Shown: one piece after another, positions 2,934 to 26,517 of the stretch
Numbering within the stretch: the stretch's first letter is position 1
Layout: every line of letters begins with the position of its first letter
DNA from: an uncultured Ruminococcus sp.
GTDB taxonomy: Bacteria; Bacillota; Clostridia; Oscillospirales; Acutalibacteraceae
Direction of reading: 5' to 3'
Assembly (NCBI GenBank): GCA_902799245.1
Contig: CADBZY010000043.1
Span: 1 to 39,772 of the forward strand
Length of the DNA: 39,772 bases
Notes under the pieces: generated by a model
What the model was told of the DNA's origin: nothing
What the model saw: the letters and a program-made list of their open reading frames with translations, nothing else
The model's database searches: none
Translations under genes and position numbers: made by a program

Positions 2934-2965
2934 ACTGTATCATACGTTGTCCAATAAATGTCCAA
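2934..2965 (-). promoter_or_regulatory. SARP-type promoter P1 (heptamer direct repeat plus -10)
   Basis: Read on the minus strand, TTGGACA copies (2959-2965 and 2948-2954) are separated by TTTA, followed by exactly 8 nt and TACAGT (2934-2939). No usual -35 is present. It drives the transpeptidase-MscS-response regulator operon, so the candidate regulator would control itself. It is divergent from P2. Confidence 0.85.
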
Positions 2966-3090
2966 TATAAAGCCTTAAAAATCGAAAATAATCTATTAAC
3001 ATATTAAGAACTTTTTATGACAAGGCAGCTTAATTTGTCAAAATAAACAAAATAACCGACAAAAGTTTGTTTCGATTTACGCCCGTTATA

Positions 3091-3122
3091 TTGGACATTT
3101 ATTGGACAAGGCATGGTATCAT
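3091..3122 (+). promoter_or_regulatory. SARP-type promoter P2 (heptamer direct repeat plus -10)
   Basis: TTGGACA at 3091-3097 and 3102-3108 with a TTTA linker, then 8 nt and TATCAT at 3117-3122. It drives the fumarate reductase operon. An ACAAAA-type element begins 49 nt (3059) and a TCAAAA element 70 nt (3038) upstream of the end of the second heptamer, as at P4, P5 and P7. The 2966-3090 spacer to P1 is AT-rich and holds no gene. Confidence 0.85.
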
Positions 3123-3153
3123 CTGTTTGAAAACTGCTTTACGGAGGTTATTT

Positions 3154-3702
3154 ATGAATATCAAAAAATGGAACGCGCGACTGTCCCTCTTCACAATGGC
3201 GTTACTGCTGATACACGAATTGTATCAGCTATACGCCTACATTTCATTCTATTATAATCCTGTCCTGTCCAAGGCTTTTGGATATGCCGTTGCCAGTGGA
3301 TTTGTGCTGCACGGCATTCTGTCAGCTGTCTGTATTTTTGCCTTGCATGACGCAAAGACGGTCGCCTATAAGAAGCTGAATTTCAAAACCGTGCTGCAGC
3401 GGGTCAGCGCGGTAATCATCGTGCTGCTTCTTCCGCTTCATATCTTTTCCTTCGCACTGTTGCAAGGCAGCGTGGGAAGCATTGCCTATATCATCGTGGA
3501 AACGGTTCAGGTGGTATTTTACGTTTCGCTGTCATGCCATGTTGGATTATCCTTCAGCAACGCCCTTGTCACACTCGGACGGCTGGAGGATAAGGGAAAG
3601 AAGCGTGTCATTGACAGAATCTGTATCATCTTCTGGACGATGCTTGCACTTGTGATGAGCATTGCCATTACGACGACACACGCGAAAATCTTTCAACTAT
3701 AA
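3154..3702 (+). CDS. Fumarate reductase/succinate dehydrogenase cytochrome b-type membrane subunit
   Basis: This is the membrane anchor that binds quinone and probably haem for the FrdAB heads that follow. The start is the ATG at 3154 behind GGAGG; the longer frame from 3067 would run through the promoter. The 182-residue protein has five hydrophobic segments (about 8-30, 43-66, 84-105, 112-135 and 155-178) with histidines in or near helices (LLIHELYQ, FVLHGIL, LLPLHIF, SLSCHVG), the layout of single-subunit FrdC/SdhC anchors. FrdA starts 22 nt downstream. Sequence similarity is weak, so the call rests on topology and operon position. Confidence 0.8.
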   Translation: MNIKKWNARLSLFTMALLLIHELYQLYAYISFYYNPVLSKAFGYAVASGFVLHGILSAVCIFALHDAKTVAYKKLNFKTVLQRVSAVIIVLLLPLHIFSFALLQGSVGSIAYIIVETVQVVFYVSLSCHVGLSFSNALVTLGRLEDKGKKRVIDRICIIFWTMLALVMSIAITTTHAKIFQL

Positions 3703-3724
3703 GCATTGTCGAGGGGTGAATGAA

Positions 3725-6044: not shown

Positions 6045-6050
6045 ATTTTG

Positions 6051-7052
6051 TCACTGATTCAAAAAAGCGATCAGTTTTTTCTGAAATTCCTGATAATACG
6101 GTTTTTCGTACATAATGACGTGCGCACCGCCTTCGATGACTTCCAGCGTGGAGCCTTCGGGAAGGGAATCGAGAGAAGAATTGACCAGATCGAAGTTCAG
6201 ATACGGATCATTGCTTCCGCATATCACCAGTGTCGGAACCGAAATGCGGGTTAGATCAATCAGCTTTTCGGATTTTGCCACACAGATGTCTTTCCTTCCG
6301 CCGTTGGGACTGTACTCTCCGTCGTAATGCCAGCAGCTTGAACAGTACATTTCTATCATTTCCGGCTCGGTTATCGTGAGGTCAAAGCTGCCGTCCGCGT
6401 CTCGCTGAAAATCATCGGCGGCGTGTTCCCATGTGTTGTGGTGGAAATCATCGGTGACATCAAATTCGCCAAGACCGCTTAGAATCGGCGCATACATGAC
6501 AAACTTTCCGATATTCTCCGGATACTTTATAACAAAGCGCGAAGCCGTCACCGTTCCCCAGCTCCAGCCGAGCAGATCAATCTTGTCCTGACCGCTTTCC
6601 TCCACAATCTTCTGCACAGCGGCGTGAATATCCTCCGCCGCGTAATCGGAATCGGGCAGGAAGCCGTCGCTGACGATTCCCGACTGACCAAAACCGGCAA
6701 TATCCAGCCGCCACACAGCGTATCCCTCGCGGGCAAGCCTTCTTGCAAGGCTGTAATCCTCATAATCCACATCAAATTCGTGAGAGGAATAGGTAACGCC
6801 GTGGGTAAGCAGGATATTCTTTTGCGGCGAGGAATCCTTCACCGTCATGCAGTCAAGGTGAAGCTCGACGCCGTTCCGACTGATCGGGATATTGATCAGT
6901 GAATATTCCGTTTCATTCTGTCCTGTTTCCGAAGTCTGCGTCGCCCGCTGACGCAGAGAAAGGTCAGAACAGCCGCTCAATTGGGCGTTCGCCGAAAACA
7001 GCAGCGCAAGTGTAAACAATAGCACGAGTGTACTTTTTATAATGTTCTTCAT
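6051..7052 (-). CDS. Exported alpha/beta hydrolase (Ser-Asp-His esterase/lipase fold)
   Basis: Residues 1-30 form a secretion signal (basic MKNIIKS, long hydrophobic run) ending near LSGC, so it may be a lipoprotein, although the lipobox is not canonical. The rest is an alpha/beta hydrolase: LTHGV oxyanion region, nucleophile elbow GWSWGT near residue 168, the acid in ICGSNDPYL and the histidine in EGGAHVIM near the C-terminus. The substrate is unknown. The ATG at 7050-7052 has AAAAGGA a short distance upstream. It is controlled by P3, divergent from the ABC exporter. Confidence 0.8.
   Translation of the reverse strand: MKNIIKSTLVLLFTLALLFSANAQLSGCSDLSLRQRATQTSETGQNETEYSLINIPISRNGVELHLDCMTVKDSSPQKNILLTHGVTYSSHEFDVDYEDYSLARRLAREGYAVWRLDIAGFGQSGIVSDGFLPDSDYAAEDIHAAVQKIVEESGQDKIDLLGWSWGTVTASRFVIKYPENIGKFVMYAPILSGLGEFDVTDDFHHNTWEHAADDFQRDADGSFDLTITEPEMIEMYCSSCWHYDGEYSPNGGRKDICVAKSEKLIDLTRISVPTLVICGSNDPYLNFDLVNSSLDSLPEGSTLEVIEGGAHVIMYEKPYYQEFQKKLIAFLNQ
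6053..6080 (+). terminator. Candidate terminator of the frd operon
   Basis: ACTGAT (6053-6058) can pair with ATCAGT (6070-6075), followed by a run of six T. The stem is short (6 bp) and lies inside the 3' end of the opposing hydrolase gene. Confidence 0.45.
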
Positions 7053-7091
7053 ATTTTGGACGACTCCTTTTTCTGTCTATTTTTCAAGGAG

Positions 7092-7123
7092 ATTCTATCA
7101 ACCGCTGTCCAATAAATGTCCAA
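7092..7123 (-). promoter_or_regulatory. SARP-type promoter P3 (heptamer direct repeat plus -10)
   Basis: On the minus strand TTGGACA (7117-7123) - TTTA - TTGGACA (7106-7112), 8 nt, then TAGAAT (7092-7097). It drives the exported hydrolase and is divergent from P4. Confidence 0.85.
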
Positions 7124-7257
7124 TATAAATTCGGTAAAACGCCCTCAAAATACAAACATTCTGTAAATGAAATGTAAATATTATTCCTCAAAAGCAAGGA
7201 TTGGTCAAAACACACAAAAATCCAAACAAAAATTTGTGAAGCAAAACAAACCTTATA

Positions 7258-7289
7258 TTGGACATTTATTGGACAAGGCATGATAAACT
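7258..7289 (+). promoter_or_regulatory. SARP-type promoter P4 (heptamer direct repeat plus -10)
   Basis: TTGGACA (7258-7264) - TTTA - TTGGACA (7269-7275), 8 nt, then TAAACT (7284-7289). An ACAAAAATTTGT element starts at 7226 and a TCAAAA element at 7205, 49 and 70 nt from the end of the second heptamer. It drives the GAF-ABC/permease operon. The 7124-7257 spacer holds no gene. Confidence 0.85.
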
Positions 7290-7326
7290 AAATAGATAAA
7301 TCATTTGTATCTATGGGAGTGATCAT

Positions 7327-8556
7327 GTGAGCAACACAAAACAGAATAAACGATTTGCGCAGGCAACATGGCAGATCATGGAGCAGCTTCTCGAAGTGGA
7401 CAGTCTGGAAGAAGCTCTTTCGGGCAGTCTGGAAATCATCGTCAAGGTGCTCAACAGTCAGGCGGGCATTATCTGGTTTCTTGACGAGAAGACCGAACGG
7501 CTCGTGCCGATCTATCATATCGGACCGTCGGACATCTCCGGCGTAACCGTTGACAACGACATGAGCATTGAGGGACTTGTGACCAAGACGGGAAAATCCG
7601 TCAGAATCGAGGACGCCTCCAAGGACGAACGATTTGAAGGCACGGTCTTTGACGAAAACGGCTTCGTGACCAAAACCATGCTCTGCGTTCCCCTCAATGA
7701 TACCAAGAAGACGGTCGGCTGTGTGCAGATCATCAACAAAAAAGACGGAAGTCTTTACGATGAGGAAGAACTGGAACTGTGCGAGCGTATGGCGGCTCTT
7801 GCCGCTATCACCATCGACGAAAAAGGGCTGATTGTGTCTGCGGAGGAGGAACGAAAGGTTCTGATTTCCCTTCGCAACATCATCAAGGAATATCCGTCCG
7901 GCGACGGTGTGCTGCGGGTGCTGAAAGGCATCAATCTGGACATCTATGAGAATGAATTTGTCGTAGTACTCGGTGAATCGGGTTGCGGCAAGTCCACCAT
8001 AATGAACATTGTCGGCGGCATGGATTTTGCGACCGACGGCGAACTCATCATTGACGGAAAGGATTTCTCCCATCCTTCGGACGAGGAACTGACCAGATAC
8101 CGTCGGGAATACGTCGGCTTCATCTTTCAGGCGTATAATCTCATGCCGAATCTGACGGCACTGGAGAATATCCAGTTCATCGCGGAAATTGCCAAAGATC
8201 CCGCCGATCCGCAGGAAGCGCTGAACATGGTGGGACTCGGCGAGAAGGGCATGAATTTCCCCGCGCAGATGTCCGGCGGACAGCAACAGCGCGTTTCCAT
8301 CGCCAGAGCGCTGGTCAAAAATCCCCGCCTGATTCTCGCGGACGAACCCACGGCGGCACTGGACTTTCAGACAGGTCAGGAAGTGCTGGTCGTCATGGAA
8401 AAGATCGTCAAGGAGCGCGGCACGACGGTCGTAATGATTACCCACAACGCGGAGATCGCCAAAATGGCGGACCGCGTGATCAAGCTGCGTTCCGGCAAAA
8501 TTGCCAGCGTTAAGCGCAATCTTCACCCGCTGCCGGCTGCAGAGATCGAGTGGTGA
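7327..8556 (+). CDS. GAF domain fused to a MacB/LolD-type ABC transporter ATPase
   Basis: The start is the GTG at 7327, 8 nt behind GGGAG. Residues 1-165 resemble a GAF sensor domain (AGIIWFLDEKTERLVPIY, GLVTKTGKSVRIED, MLCVPL, GCVQIINKKDG). Residues 180-400 are a complete ABC ATPase of the MacB/LolD class: Walker A GESGCGKST, Q-loop FIFQAYNLMP, signature MSGGQQQR, Walker B LILADEP and H-loop MITHN. It powers the large permease encoded 6 nt downstream. A GAF domain on an export ATPase is uncommon; it implies that a small ligand or redox signal could gate the transporter. The frame is intact across the junction. Confidence 0.9.
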   Translation: MSNTKQNKRFAQATWQIMEQLLEVDSLEEALSGSLEIIVKVLNSQAGIIWFLDEKTERLVPIYHIGPSDISGVTVDNDMSIEGLVTKTGKSVRIEDASKDERFEGTVFDENGFVTKTMLCVPLNDTKKTVGCVQIINKKDGSLYDEEELELCERMAALAAITIDEKGLIVSAEEERKVLISLRNIIKEYPSGDGVLRVLKGINLDIYENEFVVVLGESGCGKSTIMNIVGGMDFATDGELIIDGKDFSHPSDEELTRYRREYVGFIFQAYNLMPNLTALENIQFIAEIAKDPADPQEALNMVGLGEKGMNFPAQMSGGQQQRVSIARALVKNPRLILADEPTAALDFQTGQEVLVVMEKIVKERGTTVVMITHNAEIAKMADRVIKLRSGKIASVKRNLHPLPAAEIEW

Positions 8557-8562
8557 TGCACG

Positions 8563-11500
8563 ATGAAGAAAACACAGCGCAAGGACGCATTCAGAAATAT
8601 TTCCAAGCAGTTCGTTTCCTATTTTTCGATCATTGTCATCAGTATGCTGGCAGTCACAGCCTTTCTGGGCATCAATTACTCAGCCGATGCGCTCATCGGT
8701 AACGCATCGGATTATATGAACCGGCTTTCCTTCAGGGACGCCGAAATCACCTCCACCATGCTTGTGACGGAGAATGACATTGAGGCGATCCGGAATATGG
8801 AAGGGATCAGCGAAGCCGAAGGCGTTTATCAGACTTCCACCAAGCTGCTCGGAAAAACAAGCAATCTTTCGGTCTCTGTGATTTCCGCACCACAGAGAAT
8901 CAGTTTGCCGGAGATACGTCAGGGTTGTATGCCGGTCAGCGCCTCCGACTGTGCGCTCGAATTGGAAATTATGGAAAAAATGGGGTTGAGTGTAGGAGAT
9001 ACCGTTGAGATTGGCTCGGTGGGCGGCAAGCCCGCACCTTATCTCCGCCACACCACCCTCCGGATCTCCGGAATCTTTGTCCATGCAGATCACTACGCAA
9101 AGGAATCCTTTGCCAGCGGCAGCCGTTATATTATTGTCACAGAGGACGCCTTCGATGCCGAAGCACTCGATGGCTGCTTTACAAAGGCGTTGGTCAGATA
9201 TGACAAGCCGAACACCATGCGTATGATCGGAAGGGAATACGACGCGCTATCCGCCGAAGTATTTCCCCGTCTGAACCAACTGGCGGAGGAACGCGCGTCT
9301 ATCCGAGACGCGGAAGTAAGAGAAAGATACGCCCAGAGCATTCAAGAAGGACAGGAGCAACTTGATGAGGCAAAGCAAAAGCTCGATGACGGACGGAAAC
9401 AGCTTGACGACAGTGCCAAATTGATTGCGTCCAATGAAAAAAAACTCGCCGCAGGTAAGAAAAAGCTGGACAGCGCATGGAAACAGCTCGAAGCGGGACG
9501 TAAAAAGCTGCAAACCGCGAAAAGCAAGCTGAATGCGGGCAAGAAGAAACTCGATGCCGCTGAAAAAGAACTGAAAGCTGCCATTGATCAAGTGGTTTCA
9601 GGTACCGACTATGCGGGTAATTCTGCTGCGTACACACGAAAAATCAAGAATTACCTCGCCAAAAATTCCGTTGACAAACTGGACAGCGAGACTTCGGAAC
9701 TGCTGCCGCAAGAGGTGACTGATTCTGAAGCATATCAATCCAATTATCCATCCATCAAAAGTAAAGCGAAACAGTACAGCGACGGTCTGAAACAATACAA
9801 TAATGGTTTGAAACAGTATAATAGAGGACTTAAACAATACAACAAAGGACTAAAAGAATATAAGTCCGGTCTGGCACAGTATCGAAGCGGCGTCAAAAAG
9901 CTCAATAATGCCAAAACAGAGCTGAAAAAAGGGGAAAAGGAATACGCCGAAAAACTGACGGAATATCAAGACGGAGAAAAAGAACTGCAAAAAGCCAAAG
10001 ATGATCTGGCCGCGTTGAAAGAATGCCGCTGGGTGGTTCTGGACGCGGAAAGCAATCCGAGCTATGTCCATGCAAAATCCTCCGCTGAAAATATCCGCAA
10101 GCTGGCGCTGACTTTTGCGCTTCTTTTTGTGCTGGTCGGCATACTCGTGATTTACGCCACGGTGGCGCGTATCATCGACGAACAGAGAAAACTGGTCGGC
10201 ACCGTAAAGGCGCTCGGATTCTACAACCGTGAAGCCGCCGTCAAATATCTGCTGTTCGGACTTTCCGGTACCTTTTTCGGAATGGTTCTGGGTACGGCAT
10301 TGAGTTATTTCGTCTTGCAGAAAATGGTTCTGACGGCACACGCACAATTCTATGTGACCGACGGTATACCGTCGCGCTTCCATGTCGCGCTGACGGCAGC
10401 TGCGTTTGCGGTGGGCATTCTGATCGCTGCTATCTCGGTCTGGTGGGCATGTGCGGGTCTTATCAGACATTCCGCCATCGAATTGATGAAGGACAAAATG
10501 CCCTCGCAAAATGTGATTGCCGCGCCGAAGAAAAACGGTCGGTCGTCTCTTTATTCCCGACTGATCCTGCGCAATATCCGCATAGATATTCGCAGAGTGT
10601 GCGTCACGGTGGTCAGCGTTGCCGGCTGCTGTGCGCTGCTGGTGATCGGCTTTACGCTGCGCCACGGCATCGGCACTGCCGTCGAAAAGCAGTACCATGA
10701 AATCCTCCGATACGATCAGCGAGTGGTATTTGACCGGAATCTCTCCAAAACAGCCGAAGAGAACATACAGGCATTTCTCGATGAGAAAAACGTGTCGTAT
10801 ACCAAAATGCATTCGCGTTCAATGAGCTTCAACGCGGGACGAAAAATCACAGCCGGTCAGATGATATGTGCCGATAAGGAGAGCATCGCGCAAATTCTTC
10901 ATATGCTTGACCCGAAAACGGGAGAACAGGTGGTGCCGGGAGAACACGGCATCTGTATCATGCGGCGCACCGCTGAATATTATCATGTGAATGTCGGAGA
11001 TACCGTTATCCTGTACGATGCTTCGATGCAACCTTATGAAGTCACGGTTGAGGGAATTTATCAATACTACACCGGCATCGGCTTCGTGATGACCAAAGAC
11101 GCCTATCAGGAGGTCTTCGGCACACAGGCACGTGACAACAGTTTCCTTCTCCACGACTGCGAGGACATCAGCGGATTCTCTGATGAACTGAGAAACATCA
11201 AGGGAGTGGTGAGCATCAGCAGCAATGTGAGCCTGTACCGTTCCGCCCTGAAGGCGCTCACAGCACTGCGCTATATCATTCTGGTACTGATTATCGCGGC
11301 GGGCGTCATGGCGTACTTCATTCTGATGAATCTGGCAAATATGTACATCAACCAGAAGAAACGTGAACTGACCGTCATGCGGGTCAACGGTTTCACCACC
11401 AGAGAAGTCATCTCCTATGTTGCGCGGGAGGCGGTTGTCACTACGATCATCGGCATTCTGCTGGGCATTGCGGTCGGCGCGGTCTGCGGTTATCTGATCT

Positions 11501-11655
11501 TACGATTCGTGGAGCATCCCAGCGCGGGATTCTATCTCACGCCCAGTCTGTCATCATGGCTTTATGCCGCCGGTATCACGACACTTTATTCCATCGGGAT
11601 TTACGCGCTATCTCTGCGCAAGGTCAAGGACCTCAAGCTGACGGATATCGTGTAA
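8563..11655 (+). CDS. FtsX/MacB-like ABC transporter permease with a long extracytoplasmic coiled coil
   Basis: This 1030-residue permease starts 6 nt after the ATPase stop. A first membrane helix at about 20-42 is followed by a MacB-type periplasmic-core region to about 230, then an Ala/Lys/Leu-rich coiled coil (about 245-345 and 400-485) broken by a short insert. Three helices follow (about 508-535, 560-590, 600-630), then a second extracytoplasmic region and three C-terminal helices (about 905-930, 955-985, 1000-1020), the duplicated FtsX arrangement. Families of this layout export peptides or lipids or couple ATP hydrolysis to envelope enzymes; the substrate here is unknown. Confidence 0.88.
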   Translation: MKKTQRKDAFRNISKQFVSYFSIIVISMLAVTAFLGINYSADALIGNASDYMNRLSFRDAEITSTMLVTENDIEAIRNMEGISEAEGVYQTSTKLLGKTSNLSVSVISAPQRISLPEIRQGCMPVSASDCALELEIMEKMGLSVGDTVEIGSVGGKPAPYLRHTTLRISGIFVHADHYAKESFASGSRYIIVTEDAFDAEALDGCFTKALVRYDKPNTMRMIGREYDALSAEVFPRLNQLAEERASIRDAEVRERYAQSIQEGQEQLDEAKQKLDDGRKQLDDSAKLIASNEKKLAAGKKKLDSAWKQLEAGRKKLQTAKSKLNAGKKKLDAAEKELKAAIDQVVSGTDYAGNSAAYTRKIKNYLAKNSVDKLDSETSELLPQEVTDSEAYQSNYPSIKSKAKQYSDGLKQYNNGLKQYNRGLKQYNKGLKEYKSGLAQYRSGVKKLNNAKTELKKGEKEYAEKLTEYQDGEKELQKAKDDLAALKECRWVVLDAESNPSYVHAKSSAENIRKLALTFALLFVLVGILVIYATVARIIDEQRKLVGTVKALGFYNREAAVKYLLFGLSGTFFGMVLGTALSYFVLQKMVLTAHAQFYVTDGIPSRFHVALTAAAFAVGILIAAISVWWACAGLIRHSAIELMKDKMPSQNVIAAPKKNGRSSLYSRLILRNIRIDIRRVCVTVVSVAGCCALLVIGFTLRHGIGTAVEKQYHEILRYDQRVVFDRNLSKTAEENIQAFLDEKNVSYTKMHSRSMSFNAGRKITAGQMICADKESIAQILHMLDPKTGEQVVPGEHGICIMRRTAEYYHVNVGDTVILYDASMQPYEVTVEGIYQYYTGIGFVMTKDAYQEVFGTQARDNSFLLHDCEDISGFSDELRNIKGVVSISSNVSLYRSALKALTALRYIILVLIIAAGVMAYFILMNLANMYINQKKRELTVMRVNGFTTREVISYVAREAVVTTIIGILLGIAVGAVCGYLILRFVEHPSAGFYLTPSLSSWLYAAGITTLYSIGIYALSLRKVKDLKLTDIV
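9784..9888 (+). repeat. 21-bp tandem repeat in the permease coiled coil
   Basis: Five 21-bp units encode a heptad-like GLKQYNx repeat (GLKQYNN, GLKQYNR, GLKQYNK, GLKEYKS, GLAQYRS). The first three units are most alike, indicating recent copying. Unit number may vary between strains without changing the frame. Confidence 0.8.
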
Positions 11656-18791: not shown

Positions 18792-19319
18792 TCAATCTTC
18801 GGAATTGCCCATGGTGAGGTAAGCAGAGCGGAAGACATTGTAGCTTTCTTTCAGACCGGGCGCTTTCAGAACGGAATCAAGTCCTTCGGCGGCGCCTGCA
18901 TCCTCAAACTGCCCCTTCACGCTGTCGTAGTCGCCGTCCACGATGGCTTTGTCAAGCAACTGGAATGCTTCCACAAAAGCGTTGTCGATGTTTGCCTGCT
19001 TTTCTTCATCGAACGTGTCGTATTTTGCCTGCATTTCTGATTTAAGCTCTTCTACCTGATCGTCTGTGAAACCAATCACTGCCGCGTAGGATGCGATTCT
19101 GGCGGCAAGTTCCGCCTTCTTCAGGGATGAGCCTGCGGTGCCTTCACCGATTTCGGACGCGTCATTGAAGATTTCTCCCAGTGTGTCGTCTGTGAGTTGT
19201 TCGGTAGCGGAAGAATTAGTGCCTTCCTGACCGGAGGTCTGCTTATTATCGTCGCCGCAGCTTGCCATTAATGAAAGTACCAAGGCTGTCGCTATCATCA
19301 TTACTACTATTTTTTTCAT
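18792..19319 (-). CDS. Lipoprotein of unknown function, first gene of the P5 operon
   Basis: This 175-residue protein has a lipobox (LSLMASCG) and a low-complexity linker, then an acidic helical domain without a family I recognise. Several alternating charged and hydrophobic helices suggest a small all-alpha module exposed at the outer face of the membrane. AGGAG lies 10 nt upstream of the ATG. The LRR surface-protein gene follows after 30 nt. The leader from P5 to this gene is about 170 nt and contains a short ORF. Confidence 0.72.
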   Translation of the reverse strand: MKKIVVMMIATALVLSLMASCGDDNKQTSGQEGTNSSATEQLTDDTLGEIFNDASEIGEGTAGSSLKKAELAARIASYAAVIGFTDDQVEELKSEMQAKYDTFDEEKQANIDNAFVEAFQLLDKAIVDGDYDSVKGQFEDAGAAEGLDSVLKAPGLKESYNVFRSAYLTMGNSED

Positions 19320-19495: not shown

Positions 19496-19527
19496 AGTCT
19501 ACACAACGCTGTCCAATAAATGTCCAA
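19496..19527 (-). promoter_or_regulatory. SARP-type promoter P5 (heptamer direct repeat plus -10)
   Basis: On the minus strand TTGGACA (19521-19527) - TTTA - TTGGACA (19510-19516), 8 nt, then TAGACT (19496-19501). Upstream ACAAAA elements at 19547-19558 and 19567-19578 lie inside the last codons of the histidine kinase gene. It drives the seven-gene envelope operon. Confidence 0.85.
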
Positions 19528-19546: not shown

Positions 19547-20842
19547 TTACGATTTTGTTATTGTTATTACAGTTTTGTCACCATCTCTTTTTTCAGGCGA
19601 TTCCAGCGGAATACGGATGGTAACCGTCGTTCCCTCGCCGATCACACTGTCGACGGTGAGGGAGCCGCCGCACATACTTTGCAGTCGTTCGCGGACATTG
19701 CGGATGCCGATATGCGCTCCATCGTCCTCGTTGATCTTTTCCGGGTCAAAGCCGCATCCGTTATCCTGTATGATAATTTCGTGATAACCGTCTTTCAGGC
19801 GCGTGACAACTCTGACGATTCCTTCCTCGCAAACACGCACACCGTGCCGGATTGCGTTTTCCACCATCGGCTGAAGGGTGAGCGACGGCATCGAAAACTG
19901 ACTGTCTTCGATATCGTATTCCACTCGTATGGAATCAAAACGAACCATCTCAATATCGGAATAAAGCCGTGTGTGTTCCAGTTCCTTCCGGAAAGGAATC
20001 AAGCCCGTCTGTCCGAGCGAGTCGAGATTCTGTCGCAGATACATACCGAATTTGTCGGTAATATCCGCCGCCTTTTCCGGCCGCTGCAAACACAGCACCT
20101 TGATGGTGGAAATCGTGTTGAAGAGAAAATGCGGCTGAATCTGTGTCATCATGATCTGAATGCGCTGCTGTGCCATGAGTGCCTCTTCATGCTCCCGAAC
20201 CAGCAACAAATGAAGCCAGATATAGAAGAACACACTTCCACAGATGACAGCGGCGGTAAGATAGGTGACAGGATACTCATGCCCGACGATTTTAGTATCC
20301 AGTATAATTGATCCGATAATCAGTAAGACGTTGAAAATGGGAATGGCAACAAGCCATTTTTGAACGCGCCAGTAATCCTTTACAGTCAGATAGACAAAGT
20401 AGGCAAGAAAGATGATGCTGACATTATGACAGGTGTAGCCAAGAGGTCCCCGTTGAAAATGATTGCGTTCGTCAATCCAAAAGCAAAGATGTGAAAATAA
20501 GGCGGTCAGGTTAATGACCGTATTGACACCGAAAATACACCATGCAGGTCTGTATTTCAATTTGGGATTGACAAGGTAGAAGAACATGATCAGAAGCAGA
20601 GGACGCACCGTATATCCGTAAATACTGACAACTGTCCTAAGCAGCGGCCGGGATACTTCCAGCTCAAGGTAATAGCTTGCCAGATTCTGCATAATTAAGC
20701 TGAAATCCAGCGCGGCAATAATGAAAATGATTCTTCTGTGACTGGGCTGGATATAACGGTCATTGAGATCCATGAAGGAGAGGCCGGCCAGCAGCATCAT
20801 CAGCAGCAGAATACACGGCAAATCGGTTTGTATTTTCAACAT
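19547..20842 (-). CDS. LytS-type sensor histidine kinase with a membrane sensor domain
   Basis: Residues 1-215 contain six or seven hydrophobic segments forming a membrane sensor. A short coiled linker leads to the LytS/YehU-type kinase: His238 in QIQPHFLFNTIS is the predicted phosphorylation site. The HATPase domain has the N-box ENAIRHGV, G1 box DNGCGFDP and IGIRNVRERLQ. It has no adjacent response-regulator gene; the SARP-type regulator 18 kb away in this window is a candidate partner. A sigma-A-like promoter lies just upstream. The gene ends directly at P5, and its last codons overlap the upstream elements of that promoter. Confidence 0.9.
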   Translation of the reverse strand: MLKIQTDLPCILLLMMLLAGLSFMDLNDRYIQPSHRRIIFIIAALDFSLIMQNLASYYLELEVSRPLLRTVVSIYGYTVRPLLLIMFFYLVNPKLKYRPAWCIFGVNTVINLTALFSHLCFWIDERNHFQRGPLGYTCHNVSIIFLAYFVYLTVKDYWRVQKWLVAIPIFNVLLIIGSIILDTKIVGHEYPVTYLTAAVICGSVFFYIWLHLLLVREHEEALMAQQRIQIMMTQIQPHFLFNTISTIKVLCLQRPEKAADITDKFGMYLRQNLDSLGQTGLIPFRKELEHTRLYSDIEMVRFDSIRVEYDIEDSQFSMPSLTLQPMVENAIRHGVRVCEEGIVRVVTRLKDGYHEIIIQDNGCGFDPEKINEDDGAHIGIRNVRERLQSMCGGSLTVDSVIGEGTTVTIRIPLESPEKRDGDKTVITITKS

Positions 20843-20891
20843 TGCGGAAAATCACCATTCCTTTTTATTTATTCGGAGATTCCCTGCTTGT

Positions 20892-20920
20892 ATAGTAACG
20901 CAGCCAGAGCAGTTTTTCAA
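20892..20920 (-). promoter_or_regulatory. Sigma-A-type promoter of the histidine kinase
   Basis: On the minus strand TTGAAA (20915-20920), a 17-nt spacer and TACTAT (20892-20897), about 50 nt upstream of the kinase ATG. No heptamer repeat is present, so the kinase appears to be expressed independently of the regulon. Confidence 0.6.
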
Positions 20921-20962
20921 GTGCGTTGACGGGATTGTTTGAATTTTACAAAATGCGGCAGA

Positions 20963-22381
20963 TCAGAGCCCCGGTTGGTAAGGCAGCATTTCCATTTCCT
21001 TCAGGCATTCTCCGTGCGCCTTGTCGAGAATCGAGAGAAACTCGTCCACTTCTTCCTCGGTGTTGTAAATGCCGAAGCTGACGCGGATCATGCCCGGCGT
21101 GCCGCCTTCACCGCATTCCACCAGTTCTTTGGCTGCCTCGTCGGAAATGCCCAGCAGTCGCCAGACGTATGTATGTGCACAGAATGCACCTCTTCTCGTG
21201 GCAACGCCTTTTTCTGAAAGCTTCATGGCAAGATGCATGGAATTGACGTCGGTCAGATTGAAGGTGACCACGCCCACTCTGTCGCTGATGTCCTCCGTGT
21301 CGCCGTAAACAACCGCGTTGTCCATTTTCAGGATTCCGTCGATGAGCCTTCTGACCAGCTTCTGTTCATGCTCGCTGATCGCGTCAAACCCGACCTCCTG
21401 CAATATGTCGATGGCCTTGCCCAATCCGACCACGCCGGGGTAATTCGGAGAACCGGCTTCATAACTGGCGGGCGCGTCCTTGTAGTTCTGTTCTTTATCC
21501 GTCACGATGGTGACAATGCCGCCGCCGTAGAATTCCGGCATATGCTTGTTCAGCACCGAGGTCAGACCGACCACCGCGCCGCCGCCGTAGGGAGAATACA
21601 TCTTGTGGGCGGAGAAGACGAAGAAGTCGATGTTTTCCTCCGGCGTTTCGCCGATCATGGAGAATTTGCGGTGCGCCACGATCTGTGCGCCGTCCACGAT
21701 GATTTTCGCCCCGTATTTGTGAGCGAGCTTTGCCACGCGGTGTACGTCGGTGACGTATCCGGTCACGTTGGACGCGGCTGTGACGGCAACATACTTGACT
21801 TTGTTCTTCTTGAGCATTTTTTCAAGGCTCTTGTAATCCACCCGACCTTGTTTGTCGATCTCGGCATAGATGACCTTGCAGCGCTCTCTCCATGAGAGGT
21901 CGTTGGCGTGATGCTCCATGCGGGTACACAGCACCACGTCATCCTCGCTGGTAATCAACGCCGAAGCAAGCTTGTTCAGACCGTCGGTGGTGTTGTTGAC
22001 ATAGAAGCAGGTGTAATTTTCCTCATCCGCGCCCACGAATTGGAGTACCTTGCTGCGGGTGTCGTTGTAAAGATCAGTGGAATAATCGGATTTTTTGGAA
22101 TAGCCTCTGCCGATGGAACCGTACATTTTCATCTGTGCCTCCACCTCGTCCGAAACGGGCTGAAGGGCGGGCGTGGTAGCGGCATTGTCAAAGTTGATGA
22201 TGGCTCTTTTGCTGCCGTCATCAAGCTCTACCTGTTCGTCAACGCCGACGACATACTCGCGGATAGTGTCGATGGTGTAGCCGCTTTGTTCGTCTTTCGT
22301 ATCCTTGCCGCACGCTGTCAGCGACATCATCGCAACCAGGGCGACGCACAGGAATCTTTGGGTAATTTTGGATTGTTTCAT
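20963..22381 (-). CDS. Lipoprotein-anchored class V aminotransferase (SufS/NifS-like cysteine desulfurase fold)
   Basis: The start is the ATG at 22379-22381 behind GGGAGG. A basic N-terminus, hydrophobic run and lipobox SLTAC (lipid Cys24) predict export and lipid anchoring. The remaining 440 residues are a PLP fold type I class V enzyme: NFDNAATTP, EHHANDLSW as in SufS, Asp/Gln in VDGAQIVAH, PLP lysine Lys260 in FSAHKMYSPYGGG, and a SufS-like catalytic-loop cysteine Cys401 in RRGAFCAH. A complete PLP desulfurase-like enzyme outside the cell is unusual, since cofactor supply and sulfur acceptors are cytoplasmic. The family also contains lyases with other substrates. It is a one-gene transcription unit from P6. 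Confidence 0.85.
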   Translation of the reverse strand: MKQSKITQRFLCVALVAMMSLTACGKDTKDEQSGYTIDTIREYVVGVDEQVELDDGSKRAIINFDNAATTPALQPVSDEVEAQMKMYGSIGRGYSKKSDYSTDLYNDTRSKVLQFVGADEENYTCFYVNNTTDGLNKLASALITSEDDVVLCTRMEHHANDLSWRERCKVIYAEIDKQGRVDYKSLEKMLKKNKVKYVAVTAASNVTGYVTDVHRVAKLAHKYGAKIIVDGAQIVAHRKFSMIGETPEENIDFFVFSAHKMYSPYGGGAVVGLTSVLNKHMPEFYGGGIVTIVTDKEQNYKDAPASYEAGSPNYPGVVGLGKAIDILQEVGFDAISEHEQKLVRRLIDGILKMDNAVVYGDTEDISDRVGVVTFNLTDVNSMHLAMKLSEKGVATRRGAFCAHTYVWRLLGISDEAAKELVECGEGGTPGMIRVSFGIYNTEEEVDEFLSILDKAHGECLKEMEMLPYQPGL

Positions 22382-22429
22382 TGTAATACCTCCCTGATGG
22401 TGTATATGCAAAACACCTATTTTCTTTAC

Positions 22430-22461
22430 AGTCTAAATGACGCTGTCCAATAAATGTCCAG
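22430..22461 (-). promoter_or_regulatory. SARP-type promoter P6 (heptamer direct repeat plus -10)
   Basis: On the minus strand CTGGACA (22455-22461) - TTTA - TTGGACA (22444-22450), 8 nt, then TAGACT (22430-22435). The upstream heptamer has one change. TTACAATT-type elements at 22482 and 22502 match the upstream pair at P5 and P7. It drives the exported aminotransferase. Confidence 0.85.
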
Positions 22462-22548
22462 TAAATCGGGCAGTTTTTTAATTACAATTCAGTCATTATT
22501 ATTACAATTTTGTAAACTATCAGTTTTGCTTACTTTGTACACTTAGTA

Positions 22549-22601
22549 TAGAAAAATTCATAGAAAATAGGTAGAAAAATTCATAAAAGCGTCGTTACAA
22601 T
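22549..22601 (+). promoter_or_regulatory. Promoter with a different direct repeat
   Basis: TAGAAAAATTCATA occurs at 22549-22562 and 22572-22585 (23-bp offset), followed after 10 nt by the -10 hexamer TACAAT at 22596-22601. No good -35 is present, so an activator bound to the repeats may be needed. It serves the hydrolase-nucleosidase operon, which is divergent from the P6 gene. Confidence 0.55.
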
Positions 22602-22642
22602 AGGCTTATTAAACATACAACCTACGGAAGAAGGATGTTATC

Positions 22643-23584
22643 ATGTGGAAGAATAATCGGAACCTGATTTTGGGAGCCGCGGCACTGGTTTTGTTGCTTT
22701 CAGCAATCCTTGTGATAGTATGGACGGTTACACACGGAAAGCAGAACAGCGAGGAGTTGAAAGCGACCGAAAGCATACCGATTGAAACAGTCAAAACGGA
22801 CGCTTTCTCAATGGACTATTTCAAGTTCGGACGGGGCAAAAAAACGCTTGTGATCCTTCCCGGACTCAGCGTGCAGAGTGCCATGGGTTCCGCAGACGCG
22901 GTAGCGGATGCCTATCAGATTCTGACAGAGGATTTTACCGTCTATCTGTTTGACCGCAGAAAGGAACTGCCCGCGTCTTACTCCGTACATGAGATGGCAC
23001 AGGACACGGCGGAGGCGATGCGTGCGCTGGGGCTTGAGAATGTCTGCCTGTTCGGCACTTCGCAGGGCGGAATGACTGCGATGGATATTGCGATCCATCA
23101 TCCTGAGCTTGTGCAGAAACTGGTTCTCGGCTCGACGTCCGCCTGTGTGACAGAAGAGAATTTCAGGACGGTGGAGGAGTGGATTTCGCTGGCAAAAGCC
23201 GGAAACACAACGGATTTATATCTTAAGTTCGGAGAAGCAATTTATCCGCAGGAAGTATTTGAACAGTACCGTGAACTGCTGGCGGACGCCGCCAAAACCG
23301 TGACGCCTGACGAACTGAATCGCTTTATTATTTTGGCGGAAGGTATGAAGGGGTTCAACGTGACGGACGATCTGTCAAAAATTGCCTGTCCGGTGCTGGT
23401 GATAGGTTCCTCTGACGATGGGGTGTTGGGTGCGGATGCGACAAATCAGATTGCGAAGCATCTGAAAGACCGACCGGACTTTCAGATGTATATGTATAAC
23501 GGTTACGGACACGCCGCGTATGACACCGCGCCGGATTACAAGGAACGGTTATTGCGCTTCTTTGCGCCGGAATCAGCGGAATGA
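22643..23584 (+). CDS. Membrane-anchored alpha/beta hydrolase
   Basis: Residues 9-30 form an N-terminal membrane anchor with the domain outside the cell. An alpha/beta hydrolase follows: LVILPGLS oxyanion region, nucleophile elbow GTSQGGMT near residue 145, Asp in IGSSDDGVLG and His in GYGHAAYD near the C-terminus. The catalytic triad seems complete; the substrate is unknown. GAAGGA lies a short distance upstream of the ATG at 22643. The nucleosidase gene starts 26 nt after its stop. Confidence 0.82.
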   Translation: MWKNNRNLILGAAALVLLLSAILVIVWTVTHGKQNSEELKATESIPIETVKTDAFSMDYFKFGRGKKTLVILPGLSVQSAMGSADAVADAYQILTEDFTVYLFDRRKELPASYSVHEMAQDTAEAMRALGLENVCLFGTSQGGMTAMDIAIHHPELVQKLVLGSTSACVTEENFRTVEEWISLAKAGNTTDLYLKFGEAIYPQEVFEQYRELLADAAKTVTPDELNRFIILAEGMKGFNVTDDLSKIACPVLVIGSSDDGVLGADATNQIAKHLKDRPDFQMYMYNGYGHAAYDTAPDYKERLLRFFAPESAE

Positions 23585-23610
23585 TATGTAAAATTAAAGG
23601 AGGTTACTCA

Positions 23611-24408
23611 ATGAAAAGACTGACCGCTATGAGTTTATTGACGATACTGACATGCGGGGTGCTTGCCGGATGCGTGGGAGGCAAGCCGGCTCCGGCACAG
23701 GAAACGATCGGAATTATCGGTGCTATGGATACCGAGGTAGCGTCCTTAAAACAGGAAGCCGATATCAAAAAGACAACCGTCATCGCCGGAATGGAATTCT
23801 GCGAGGGCACGCTGGAAGGGAAAAATGTCGTCATTGTCAAGTGCGGCATGGGAAAGGTCAACGCCGGCATTTGCGCGAATACGCTGATCAACAATTTCGG
23901 TTGCACCAAGATCATCAACACGGGCGTTGCGGGTTCTCTGGACAATCAGATCGACATCGGCGATATCGTCGTATCGGTTGACGCGGTGCAGCACGATTTC
24001 ACCGTGGAAGCCATCGGCTTTGCGAAAGGAGAAATCCCATACACGGGACTTTACGCATTCCCAGCGGACAAGTCCCTGCGCGAGGCAGCGGTAGAAGCCG
24101 TGAAGAAGACCTCTCCCGATATCCATGTGTTTGAGGGCAGAGTATGTTCGGGCGATCAATTCATTTCCACCAAAGAGCAAAAAGAAATCATTACATCCAA
24201 ATTCGGGGGACTGTGCTGTGAGATGGAGGGTGCCGCCATCGCGCAGGCCTGTTATCTGAACAACACGCCGTTTGTGGTGATACGCGCCATTTCGGACAAG
24301 TCGGACGATTCGCAATCCGTGGAATTTGAAACCTTTCAGAAAGAAGCCGCTGCGAACTGTGCGAAGGCTGTTCTGTATATGGTGAAAACCTGTAAAAGAA
24401 TGATATGA
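23611..24408 (+). CDS. mtnN: Lipoprotein-type 5'-methylthioadenosine/S-adenosylhomocysteine nucleosidase
   Basis: The start is the ATG at 23611 behind AAAGGAGG. A leader with lipobox GVLAGC (Cys21) predicts an exported, lipid-anchored form. The rest is a full MtnN/Pfs domain: GIIGAMDTEV with the acidic residue of the active site, CGMGKVNAG, NTGVAGSLD, SGDQFIS, CCEMEGAAIAQ with the ribose-binding Glu and ISDKSDD with the catalytic Asp. The enzyme cleaves adenine from MTA and SAH. Export is unusual because the substrates arise in the cytoplasm. It is followed by a strong terminator. Confidence 0.9.
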   Translation: MKRLTAMSLLTILTCGVLAGCVGGKPAPAQETIGIIGAMDTEVASLKQEADIKKTTVIAGMEFCEGTLEGKNVVIVKCGMGKVNAGICANTLINNFGCTKIINTGVAGSLDNQIDIGDIVVSVDAVQHDFTVEAIGFAKGEIPYTGLYAFPADKSLREAAVEAVKKTSPDIHVFEGRVCSGDQFISTKEQKEIITSKFGGLCCEMEGAAIAQACYLNNTPFVVIRAISDKSDDSQSVEFETFQKEAAANCAKAVLYMVKTCKRMI

Positions 24409-24410
24409 AC

Positions 24411-24470
24411 AAAAACAGCGGGCTGTCATGCCGGGAGTTGCTTTCCCTTGCGTGGCAGCCCGCTGTTTTT
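24411..24470 (+). terminator. Rho-independent terminator
   Basis: AAAAACAGCGGGCTG (24411-24425) pairs perfectly with CAGCCCGCTGTTTTT (24456-24470), 15 bp with T5 on the plus strand and, by symmetry, T5 on the minus strand. It separates the nucleosidase operon from the convergent P7 operon. Confidence 0.9.
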
Positions 24471-24497
24471 ATGTGTAATAATGATAATCCTTCGCTT

Positions 24498-24911
24498 TCA
24501 CTTGGATTCACTCACAGATGGGGCACTCTCCGATTCGTTGGTTTCCACCTTTTTGATGGCGTCGCTGACGTCCTTTGAAAGCTCCATTCGCTGGAAATCC
24601 TCGTCGTCCGAAAGGTACAGATCAAAACTTTCGGTCAGGTCAAAGGCAGCTTCGGCGGTTTCAAATGACAAATCGAGGATATGTCCTCCCTTGGTTCTGT
24701 CATGGGAAATAAAGTGGAAATGCCAGCCCGGAGTGTTCAGACCGCCCATATAATCGGGGCAATAGAGCGCAACGACCGTCCCTTTGATATTCTCGTAATG
24801 AAACTCTCTCTGGTCGGTGGACAGTGCCTGATCAAGTGATTTGTAGGGCTTTTCCTGTTTCAGTTCACTTCGCACAAACATCTTTTGGAATTCTCCGCTG
24901 ACCTTTACCAT
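24498..24911 (-). pseudogene. N-terminally truncated acetolactate decarboxylase
   Basis: The frame matches the C-terminal half of AlsD/BudA: GTVVALYCPDYMGGLNTPG, then the zinc-ligand region GWHFHFISHDRTKGGHILD with three histidines. The coding signal continues upstream of the ATG at 24911 (NGKNLFY, also family-like) to a TAA, after which the N-terminal half, including the first conserved catalytic Glu, is absent. Normal proteins are about 230-260 aa; here 137 aa remain. It probably cannot decarboxylate acetolactate to acetoin. It is the third gene of the P7 operon. Confidence 0.75.
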
Positions 24912-24972
24912 GTAAAACAGGTTTTTACCGTTTTCTTCTACTGTTTGACTTCGTTAAAAATTCCATTCAATA

Positions 24973-25818
24973 TTAATCCGCTACAAACGCGGAGCTGTAA
25001 ACGACGGTGGTCTTGTAAACGCCGGAGTCAGCGGCAGCGATATCGTTCCGGTTGATGGTTATCTGTAGGGCACTGTAATTCGTGTAACCGAAGCTTACCG
25101 GGCCATTGTCATTGGAAGCCGTCACGCCGTAACCGCCGATACGGCAATCCTCATTGGTGCTGAAACTGCCGATGGTAAAGGGGATGGTTTTGGTGCTGTC
25201 ATCTGTTTTTTTGAACAAGCCGTCATACCGCATAAAAGCATAAATATGACCGGCAGTGAAATTGGAAACGTCTGTGATGCTCGCCTCGCCAAGATTAATA
25301 TATTCAACCGGATATGTCACCGAAACATCGGCAGGAATATTGAGTGTCCATGTGGGAGTCGTCACTTCTGCGGTATAAATGATGTAAAACTCCGCGTAGG
25401 TATTGCTATAGGTCTTCGTCGCATTCATGCCGTTGATGGTAAACACTGCGTCGTCGGCGATTCTGAAGCTGTCATTGAGTTGCACATTCACGCTTATCTT
25501 GTACTTCTGACCGGCTTTATATGTATAACCCGTTTCATATCGTACAGCGGTACCTTCGTTTCCATTGTCGTCTGTCTCATAGATGTTGATATTGCCGGTT
25601 TTAAAGAACTGAGCGTTTTCGACAGTCAATGAATCATCTACCGTTTTTCCGGCCGCAGGCAGAACAACGGTAGCTTTGACCTTGTGAATCATAGCGTAGT
25701 CGGAAATGGTGAGCGTAATTTCCTGACTCTGTGAACTATCGGCGAAAGCGGTGACGGCAAACGTACAAAACATACACATCATCGCCGCGGAAAGCAAAAG
25801 CGCAAATGTTTTTTTCAT
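24973..25818 (-). CDS. Secreted beta-rich protein of unknown function
   Basis: The start is the ATG at 25816-25818, 9 nt behind AAAGGAA; the longer frame to 25869 is less supported. A cleavable signal peptide ends TAFADS. The mature part has two beta-rich halves: the first like extracellular adhesion modules, the second with WTLNIPADVSVTYP...INLGEASITDV, a pattern I associate with fimbrial or surface beta-sandwich proteins of gut Firmicutes. No sortase signal is seen. It follows the membrane protein gene directly in the P7 operon. Confidence 0.75.
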   Translation of the reverse strand: MKKTFALLLSAAMMCMFCTFAVTAFADSSQSQEITLTISDYAMIHKVKATVVLPAAGKTVDDSLTVENAQFFKTGNINIYETDDNGNEGTAVRYETGYTYKAGQKYKISVNVQLNDSFRIADDAVFTINGMNATKTYSNTYAEFYIIYTAEVTTPTWTLNIPADVSVTYPVEYINLGEASITDVSNFTAGHIYAFMRYDGLFKKTDDSTKTIPFTIGSFSTNEDCRIGGYGVTASNDNGPVSFGYTNYSALQITINRNDIAAADSGVYKTTVVYSSAFVAD

Positions 25819-25870
25819 GGGTCTTATTCCTTTCATAGTTGCATTTTTGAGGACGTCGTATCGATTCATC

Positions 25871-26476
25871 CTAATAAACTTTTATCGTGATGGGGCTGTC
25901 CGCTCCGTTGAGCGGGTTTTGTGCTTCATCATTGGTGAAGCACTCGTACACCAGACGGGCTTCATACTCTCCGGCGGAAAGAGCGCGGGACAGTACGACA
26001 GTTTCCGACGTCTCGCCGGGTCTGAGAAGCTCCGACTGCCAGAGCGTTTCTCCGTCCAGCACAATCGAAACGCGGAACTGTGCGAAATTCTGTTCGGGAT
26101 TTGTGAAGGTCAATGTCTGCTTTTTGGTTCTTGCAGTGAACGTAAGCCACGCAAATTGCGGGAGGGCAATGGAATCGGTCAATTTATCCGGGTTCTCGTT
26201 CGTTTGCGCGGACGTGGTGAGCGAAAGCTGTGAATTTCCCTTTGAAATGACCGCCCAGACAGCCACACTGACAGAGAGCAGTGTGATAATTAACAGAATG
26301 ACAATCAGTTTATCACGCCCGTCCCTTTCCTTTTGTTTTTTCTCCTGTCGGAATTGACTTTCTTCCTTTTGGTTGTTTTGCTCGTCGATAAGATTCACCT
26401 CCTTTTTTCGGATTGACTTGGGTTGTTTTTCTCCCCATCTGTTTTTGAATGCGGTTTTGCCTTTTTGTTTTCGCAT
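25871..26476 (-). CDS. Membrane-anchored beta-sandwich protein, first gene of the P7 operon
   Basis: A basic, Gln-rich cytoplasmic N-terminus is followed by one membrane helix (about residues 56-77) and an extracellular beta-sandwich of about 115 residues (LTFTNPEQNFAQFRVSIVL, AGEYEARLVYEC). The start is unclear. The ATG at 26476 lies only about 3 nt from the predicted +1 of P7, so it would be nearly leaderless. A perfect AAAAAAGGAGGTG at 26396-26408 sits 8 nt before the in-frame codon ATC at 26387-26389, where a start codon would be expected; initiation there would give IDEQNNQ or, if mutated from ATG, MDEQNNQ. The two adjacent genes probably act together at the cell surface. Confidence 0.72.
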   Translation of the reverse strand: MRKQKGKTAFKNRWGEKQPKSIRKKEVNLIDEQNNQKEESQFRQEKKQKERDGRDKLIVILLIITLLSVSVAVWAVISKGNSQLSLTTSAQTNENPDKLTDSIALPQFAWLTFTARTKKQTLTFTNPEQNFAQFRVSIVLDGETLWQSELLRPGETSETVVLSRALSAGEYEARLVYECFTNDEAQNPLNGADSPITIKVY

Positions 26477-26485
26477 TCCAATTGT

Positions 26486-26517
26486 ATGCTATCATACCCT
26501 GTCCAATAAATGTCCAG
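26486..26517 (-). promoter_or_regulatory. SARP-type promoter P7 (heptamer direct repeat plus -10)
   Basis: On the minus strand CTGGACA (26511-26517) - TTTA - TTGGACA (26500-26506), 8 nt, then TAGCAT (26486-26491). Upstream elements at 26538-26549 and 26559-26570 match the pair at P5. It drives the surface-protein operon. Confidence 0.85.

What the first reader, a model, noticed from the sequence alone, without database searches (positions are those of the whole stretch)
2934..26517. Seven promoters with SARP geometry in an apparent Firmicute: a local regulon
Seen: TTGGACA-TTTA-TTGGACA (one base changed at P6 and P7) occurs at 2948-2965, 3091-3108, 7106-7123, 7258-7275, 19510-19527, 22444-22461 and 26500-26517. 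In every case exactly 8 nt separate it from a TANNNT -10 (TACAGT, TATCAT, TAGAAT, TAAACT, TAGACT, TAGACT, TAGCAT). The linker is invariant and no -35 is present. Known: SARP activators of Streptomyces bind heptamer direct repeats at 11-bp spacing, 8 bp from the -10. Inference: the receiver-SARP regulator at 448-1255 acts here, so the window encodes regulator, candidate kinase and at least seven target units (envelope lipoproteins, exported enzymes, ABC exporter, fumarate respiration).
Basis: partly seen in the sequence, partly recalled or inferred. Interest (0 to 1): 0.88.

Follow-up and report, generated by a model that had tools for sequence, protein, structure and literature searches.

The report
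Clostridial regulon with SARP-like promoters
A bacterium, probably from the rumen, carries many copies of one strict promoter signal, a doubled 11-base word set a fixed distance from the -10 box, and comparison across genomes points to one family of two-component regulators that probably switches these promoters on.

Summary
All seven boxes, each with its -10 exactly 8 nt away, are in the sequence, where 0.02 boxes are expected; an eighth, weaker box at 26683 lacks the -10. The pattern is not local: the genome has 19 exact TGGACA-N5-TGGACA sites, 18 box-like. In 80 related loci, 88 of 99 core sites carry TANNNT at exactly 8 nt.

The regulator link is well supported but indirect. Across 398 family genomes, close relatives of the regulator and full boxes co-occur in 13; 3 have only the regulator, 2 only the box (p = 7e-20). 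In 41 of 74 loci a box lies just downstream of the regulator gene.

"SARP" is half right. Pfam finds no BTA domain, but the modelled effector matches AfsR and EmbR ahead of PhoB, with three tail helices where SARPs have a seven-helix BTA domain. The window's own regulator copy is frameshifted; intact paralogs exist elsewhere in the genome. Best reading: a receiver plus minimal-SARP response regulator activating promoters with a -10, often TGN-extended, and probably its own operon. I found no paper on it in the searches made.

The parts
2948..2965 (-). Box P1 TTGGACATTTATTGGACA; -10 TACAGT at 2934-2939
3091..3108 (+). Box P2; -10 TATCAT at 3117-3122
7106..7123 (-). Box P3; -10 TAGAAT at 7092-7097
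7258..7275 (+). Box P4; -10 TAAACT at 7284-7289
19510..19527 (-). Box P5; -10 TAGACT at 19496-19501
22444..22461 (-). Box P6 (one change); -10 TAGACT at 22430-22435
26500..26517 (-). Box P7 (one change); -10 TAGCAT at 26486-26491
26683..26700 (+). Eighth, weak box (two changes), divergent to P7, no -10 at 8 nt; doubtful
560..1255 (-). Receiver + winged-helix response regulator; frameshifted in a T-run before its conserved tail (out-of-frame remnant to about 448)
1342..2064 (-). MscS-like channel (shorter than the C37 copy), between P1's lipoprotein and the regulator gene
2067..2843 (-). Lipoprotein-like protein with YkuD-like domain (below Pfam cut-off), first gene after P1
3154..6044 (+). P2 unit: membrane protein without Pfam family, fumarate-reductase-type flavoprotein and iron-sulfur subunit
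6051..7052 (-). P3 gene: alpha/beta hydrolase, exported by the look of its N terminus
7327..11655 (+). P4 unit: GAF-ABC ATPase and FtsX-type permease
18792..19319 (-). P5 gene: lipoprotein-like protein of unknown family
20963..22381 (-). P6 gene: SufS-like class-V aminotransferase with lipoprotein-type signal by eye
19547..20842 (-). Candidate sensor kinase (His_kinase PF06580 + HATPase), 120 nt after the P6 gene on the same strand; co-transcription not shown
24973..26476 (-). P7 unit: two proteins without Pfam family, exported or membrane-bound by eye

Best explanation
The boxes are operators of one family of response regulators. Each regulator has a CheY-like receiver and an OmpR/SARP-type winged helix with a short conserved tail modelled as three helices. 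After phosphorylation, probably by the neighbouring PF06580-type sensor kinase, two protomers bind head to tail on two 11-bp units (consensus TwTrTTGGACA twice), take the place of a -35 element, and hold RNA polymerase on a -10 (often TGN-extended) exactly 8 nt downstream. Targets are envelope, exported and signalling genes, in several loci regulator or kinase genes themselves, so the circuit is probably positively autoregulated. Shown: the sequence rule, its conservation, its co-occurrence with and linkage to the regulator. Inferred: binding, phosphorylation, activation rather than repression, operon structure, and the signal. In this genome the window's regulator copy is frameshifted; the intact C37 copy (93% identical) probably serves these promoters.
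For: De novo scan without a named word: in 1.2 Mb around 80 regulators only a 4-nt gap with 8-10 nt tail stands out, 69/63/68 against at most 25 in any other cell. TGGACA-N5-TGGACA: 99 sites with up to 1 mismatch, 77 exact; 1-19 at other gaps (exact 0-1); 1 for the reversed word; 88 of 99 have TANNNT at exactly 8, next best offset 17 of 99. Co-occurrence 13/3/2/380 in 398 genomes, p = 7e-20; the 48% identity cut was set after seeing the gap in the hits; with all 42 homolog genomes it is 13/29/2/354, p = 3e-12, and without the own genome 12/3/2/380, p = 1.5e-18; by genus 8/2/1/124, p = 1.8e-10. 0 of 26 genomes with only distant homologs carry a full box. 41 of 74 loci have a box from -40 to +200 nt of the regulator stop; 40 boxes in the 0-200 bin, at most 4 in other same-strand bins and 5 in opposite-strand bins. 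The flank base of the box follows the regulator tree: 12 changes against 31.4 shuffled, 0 of 200 as low. Within a box the two flank bases agree in 82 of 95 (34.3 expected; 0 of 2000 shuffles). In 63 regulators, Y181, D182, R183, Q186, K187, D190 and R194 of the predicted recognition helix and the loop before it do not vary, like the core. 91 of 101 boxes lie outside crudely called genes in sequence called 87% coding. The stretch after the box encodes a regulator homolog in 9, a kinase in 4 and a receiver-only protein in 3 of 98 distinct boxes. Effector model pLDDT 93; top PDB matches AfsR and EmbR.
Against: No binding, transcript or phosphorylation data. G036 has 5 boxes but its best homolog is a 29% receiver match; G136 has one box and no close regulator, and the reversed control pattern also hits 2 genomes of the 398. 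G184 and G091 have the regulator and no exact box; their one-mismatch core counts are 8 against 5 and 5 against 13 control hits; G333 has one one-mismatch box with -10. L045 and L046 encode 70%-identical regulators with no box found near them, and 14 of 77 loci have no box with up to 1 mismatch and a -10. Related genomes are not independent; the tree is only partly resolved (26 of 74 inner branches starred). Flank agreement between the two units is seen at three positions and not at three others. The regulator columns most associated with the flank base are 148 (winged-helix domain), 258 (tail), 12 (receiver) and 215 (predicted wing); a receiver column ranking third shows that shared ancestry alone can give such scores. 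Activation is inferred from geometry alone.
Confidence: 0.8

Rival explanations
1. The regulator is simply an OmpR/PhoB-type response regulator reading a PHO-box-like operator; the SARP resemblance of the tail is incidental and plays no part in activation.
For: 7-4-7 direct repeats and receiver plus winged helix are the PhoB plan (PMC4415409 passages); NCBIfam PhoB model NF053854 matches 30 of 41 effector domains, AfsR 3 of 41; PF00486 matches 40 of 41, PF03704 none. A profile of the effectors finds OmpR-type DrrB and ArlR (E about 0.001) before EmbR (0.038), PhoB (0.55) and AfsR (0.82) in the PDB sequences. The full-length model's first Foldseek match is the OmpR/PhoB homolog DrrB. The E. coli pho box replaces the -35 (PMC4971064 passage).
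Against: For the effector alone the best structural matches are AfsR and EmbR over 165-168 columns (TMq 0.66-0.74, rmsd 4.2-5.5) against PhoB over 84 (TMq 0.48, rmsd 2.0-2.1); the gain comes from the tail, which holds G233, G243, Y245, M246, Y249 and W251, invariant in 45 of 45 aligned regulators. The 8-bp spacing is the published SARP value.
Confidence: 0.3
2. A different factor encoded beside the regulator (the distant response regulator, the receiver-only protein, the small protein or a STAS protein) reads the boxes and the regulator only travels with it.
For: Such genes stand directly after boxes in several loci.
Against: As the stretch after a box they are a minority: small protein 7, STAS 6, receiver-only 3, distant regulator 3 of 98. 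Three small proteins scanned have no Pfam family and the STAS protein only STAS. The flank base follows the regulator tree. Co-occurrence of these other genes with boxes was not tested genome-wide.
Confidence: 0.08
3. The boxes are promoters of an alternative sigma factor whose -35 happens to be doubled.
For: First repeat core is one mismatch from TTGACA in 89 of 95 boxes.
Against: Its spacing to the -10 is 19 nt; two units with the same variable flank base suggest two bound protomers; the -10 is of the ordinary TANNNT form, with TGN before it in 58 of 95.
Confidence: 0.04
4. Chance, or copies of a dispersed repeat element.
For: C37 carries paralogs of several window genes, so some boxes were probably copied with their genes.
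Against: 0.02 expected in the window; strong conservation is confined to the 11-bp units and the -10, with weak A- or T-rich positions around; full boxes in 9 genera of the family before different genes.
Confidence: 0.01

Closest known systems
SARP activators of Streptomyces (AfsR and its afs box)
   Same: 11-bp direct repeats, 3' repeat 8 bp from the -10; afs box 22 bp centred at -29.5, here about -31 if transcription starts 7 nt after the -10 (assumed); OmpR-type winged helix; effector model's best PDB matches are AfsR 8hvr/8k60 and EmbR
   Different: N-terminal receiver; no BTA domain by Pfam; three tail helices modelled where AfsR's BTA has seven, of which helices 3-7 seat sigma region 4; host is a Clostridia relative
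PhoB/PhoP and the PHO box
   Same: Response regulator with winged helix on two 11-nt units; in E. coli the box replaces the -35
   Different: Word TGGACA instead of CTGTCAT; conserved tail; receiver closest by sequence to LytR/BtsR types; kinase of the PF06580 type
LytTR-type regulators with PF06580 kinases
   Same: Receiver and kinase type; the pairing with LytTR is recalled
   Different: Effector is a winged helix, not LytTR

Membership tests
SARP family | OmpR-type winged-helix DNA-binding domain | tested here: met
   PF00486 in 40 of 41 at E up to 1, in the own genome's copies below the curated cut-off; model elements
SARP family | BTA domain (PF03704; seven helices in AfsR) | tested here: not met
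   No PF03704 at E 10 in 3 regulators or at E 1 in 41 effectors; only three tail helices modelled
SARP family | Overall fold of the SARP domain | tested here: inconclusive
   Best matches AfsR/EmbR, TMq 0.66-0.74, rmsd 4.2-5.5; partial tail only
SARP family | Direct repeats at 11-bp pitch, 8 bp from the -10 | tested here: met
   88 of 99 sites; definition
OmpR/PhoB response regulators | Receiver plus C-terminal winged helix | tested here: met
   PF00072 above cut-off, PF00486 below cut-off
OmpR/PhoB response regulators | Score above a curated PhoB model | tested here: not met
   TIGR02154 38.6 bits against cut-off 296.2
Both | Binding to the repeats and activation of transcription | not testable with these tools
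   needs protein and RNA work

The most novel reading that the evidence does not exclude
A two-component family with a minimal SARP effector, only the first part of the BTA domain, activates SARP-geometry promoters in gut Clostridia, and in this genome the circuit works across duplicated loci: the window keeps the kinase but has a frameshifted regulator, while C37 keeps the regulator but shows only a fragment of the kinase. It would suggest a receiver-driven ancestor or offshoot of SARPs that contacts sigma without the known BTA platform.
Probability: 0.4. Interest if true: 0.72.

Novelty: new variant of a known kind. Interest (0 to 1): 0.64.

Why it matters
It gives a precise, testable operator for a regulator family in largely uncultured gut Clostridia, so regulons can be read directly from assembled genomes. 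It also places SARP geometry, known from Streptomyces antibiotic control, in a receiver-bearing regulator with a much shorter activation domain, which would make the minimal requirements of SARP-type activation directly testable. Recurrent targets (STAS proteins, a SpoIIE-type phosphatase gene, kinases, regulators) suggest a layered envelope-signalling circuit.

Tried and rejected
Placing the regulator in an NCBIfam equivalog: none of the 25 best shown reached its cut-off. Finding the box word in print: six spellings, 0 papers; others (15 of 5,170 papers listed; 12 of 138 listed; 10 of 13; 10 of 18) showed nothing on it in their listings; the library holds only open PMC papers. Finding a different 11-bp-pitch box near more distant regulators (32-45% identity): no convincing pattern in the 8 loci scanned. 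Looking for the regulator outside the family: of 381 genomes of the class (a draw that includes some family members), at E 1e-60 only the own genome has a close relative and two others have 44-45%; boxes were not searched in that set, and in those two genomes core counts were at control level, 3 against 7 and 9 against 8. With two mismatches the genome-wide core count (77/75) is hardly above the reversed control (70/68), so only exact and one-mismatch sites are used. Operon ends: terminator and promoter scans were near shuffle level; one search has a promoter-like site in the gap before the kinase, so the kinase may have its own promoter. The full-length model has low pTM (0.56), so it was not used for domain arrangement. 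Gene calls are crude and include some wrong-strand ORFs.

Rows dropped or capped: one search kept 80 of 145 relatives; 77 of 80 loci had a regulator frame of at least 200 aa starting near the query start; 74 of those 77 have 200 nt downstream; the tree comparison uses the 65 rows with a box of 79, two labelled by hand; the column test uses 63 rows, one C-class row dropped and the C37 copy added. Boxes were chosen with the -10 required. The regulator search scored at most 6 candidates a genome.
Full report
Observation. The 18-mer TTGGACATTTATTGGACA occurs in the 39,772-base window at the seven stated places, five exact and two with one change, and at an eighth with two changes (shuffles 0.02). 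Each of the seven has TANNNT after exactly 8 nt; the eighth does not. In the whole 3.03-Mb genome, up to 3 mismatches, there are 20 sites against 1 for the reversed pattern. The exact core TGGACA-N5-TGGACA occurs 19 times; 18 are box-like and one, on C9, has another linker and no -10. Seventeen of the 19 have the -10 at 8 nt.

Rule from related loci. A scan of genome contigs for relatives of the regulator found 145, of which the best 80 became loci. The record titles name Clostridia, Lachnospiraceae, Ruminococcus, Oscillospiraceae and a few others; many titles state rumen, omasum or other ruminant gut, several state no source. The window itself is unnamed; 2,092 nt of it match contig L120 of MAG RUG328 at 99.3%, a rumen genome if I recall the prefix correctly. 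Without naming any word, I counted exact 7-mer repeats by gap and by distance to TANNNT in these 1.2 Mb: gap 4 with tails 8, 9 and 10 gave 69, 63 and 68; every other cell was 25 or below. The core search gave 99 sites at a 5-nt gap (77 exact) against 1-19 at other gaps and 1 for the reversed word, and 88 of 99 have TANNNT at offset 8. In 95 distinct boxes selected for the -10 the unit is 11 bp, about T-w-T-r-T-T-G-G-A-C-A, twice, and 58 have TG one base before the -10. Variants are aTTGGACATTTaTTGGACA, gTTGGACATTTgTTGGACA and CTTTGGACATcCTTTGGACA among others.

Link to the regulator. In a draw of 398 family genomes, 42 have a homolog at E 1e-45 or better. By best hit they fall into 16 genomes at 48% identity or more and 26 at 43% or less. 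Full boxes with -10 occur in 15 genomes; the reversed control hits 2. The overlap is 13; 3 have the regulator only (G184, G333, G091), 2 the box only (G036, G136), 380 neither; Fisher p 7e-20. The cut was set after seeing the hits; with all 42 homolog genomes the table is 13/29/2/354, p 3e-12, and without the own genome 12/3/2/380, p 1.5e-18. By genus it is 8/2/1/124, p 1.8e-10. None of the 26 genomes with only distant homologs has a full box. In 41 of 74 usable loci a box lies from 40 nt before to 200 nt after the regulator stop on the same strand. The flank base tracks the regulator tree (12 changes, shuffled mean 31.4). Flank bases of the two units agree within a box at three positions (82 of 95 where 34.3 are expected at the best one) and show no excess at three others. 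The predicted recognition helix is nearly invariant, like the core. The columns most associated with the flank base are 148, 258, 12 and 215; since 12 lies in the receiver, ancestry alone can produce such scores, and contact with DNA was not tested.

The regulator. It has PF00072 and, below cut-off, PF00486; PF03704 (BTAD) is absent at E 10 in three copies and at E 1 in 41 effectors. The receiver scores best with BtsR/LytR models. By sequence profile the effector finds OmpR-type domains (E about 0.001) before EmbR (0.038) and AfsR (0.82). The full-length model (pLDDT 86, pTM 0.56) matches OmpR/PhoB regulators first. The effector alone models at pLDDT 93, pTM 0.88, with a winged helix and three tail helices, and Foldseek then ranks AfsR (8hvr, 8k60) and EmbR first, TMq 0.66-0.74 over 165-168 columns, with PhoB at 0.48 over 84 but with lower rmsd. 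According to PMC10936776 (passages) the AfsR BTA domain has seven helices, of which 3-7 seat sigma region 4. That platform is not seen here, so sigma contact, if any, must be made differently; this is inference.

State in this genome. The window regulator frame ends at 560 after 231 residues, 37 short of the intact C37 copy, so it lacks the tail whose G233, G243, Y245, M246, Y249 and W251 are invariant in 45 aligned regulators; the five relatives compared keep the frame open at that place. The match in one of them, L120, spans 7 nt more than its residues need, so that copy may be disturbed elsewhere (not followed). The MscS gene before the regulator is also shorter than its C37 copy. Intact regulators lie at C37:21290 (93% identical) and C27:21137 (62-65%). 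The kinase is intact in the window and on C27; on C37 only an N-terminal fragment was found. Assembly error cannot be excluded.

Circuit. P1 precedes a lipoprotein-like gene, MscS and the regulator on one strand; P6 precedes the SufS-like gene and, after 120 nt, the kinase. Co-transcription was not shown, and a promoter-like site lies before the kinase. The intact C37 regulator likewise follows an MscS gene behind a box. Among 98 distinct boxes, the stretch after the box encodes a regulator homolog in 9 (before the main regulator in L103 and L111, before a second regulator gene in L068, L069, L078, L088, L109 and L117; L093 is weak at E 1e-8), a kinase in 4, a receiver-only protein in 3, a STAS protein in 6, an MscS in 3 and a small conserved protein in 7; by a crude pattern 30 more look exported and 36 are unclassified (positions). 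On C37 a box precedes a SpoIIE-type phosphatase with a HATPase domain. The signal is unknown; an envelope or secretion stimulus is a guess from the targets.

Verdict. The SARP reading is right for geometry and partly for fold, wrong for the defining BTA domain, and the local regulator copy is probably not the one that acts. Three papers were seen as passages (PMC10936776, PMC4415409, PMC4971064), others only as search listings; the rest of what is said about PhoB, SARPs and LytTR systems is recalled.

Noticed in passing
window 20963-22411, 23581-24408; L187 7452-8459: Enzymes that are normally cytosolic (SufS-like aminotransferase, PF01048 nucleosidase/phosphorylase, prephenate dehydratase domain PF00800) carry lipoprotein-type signal peptides by eye.
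   Followed up: partly
window 128-394 (-); L050, L061, L089, L090, L099, L106, L108, L119: A small protein family (three members scanned, no Pfam match), several beginning with an LSxEQLExxSGG-like leader, follows a box in these loci; double-glycine leaders look like this from memory. The window member lies after the regulator, with no box found there.
   Followed up: partly
L187 (G000:C37:1-19000) and L022 against the window: Contig C37 carries paralogs of many window genes (MscS, regulator, SufS-like gene, LRR protein, lipoprotein-like genes): a partial segmental duplication with complementary damage to kinase and regulator.
   Followed up: partly
window 26903-27472 (-) and L187 3340-6216: By eye the window protein resembles the C-terminal part of the C37 LRR protein, which has only a sub-threshold Pfam match to an ADP-ribosyltransferase family (E 0.088).
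   Followed up: no
window 31317-35589 (-): Two membrane proteins with M56-peptidase-like features beside a small repressor-like protein, like a BlaR/BlaI pair doubled; label by eye, not searched.
   Followed up: no
L023 919-1329 (-), L053, L054: A receiver-only protein behind a regulator box, possibly a phosphate sink or competitor for the kinase (guess).
   Followed up: no
genome G036: Five full boxes but no close regulator in a 98% complete assembly.
   Followed up: partly
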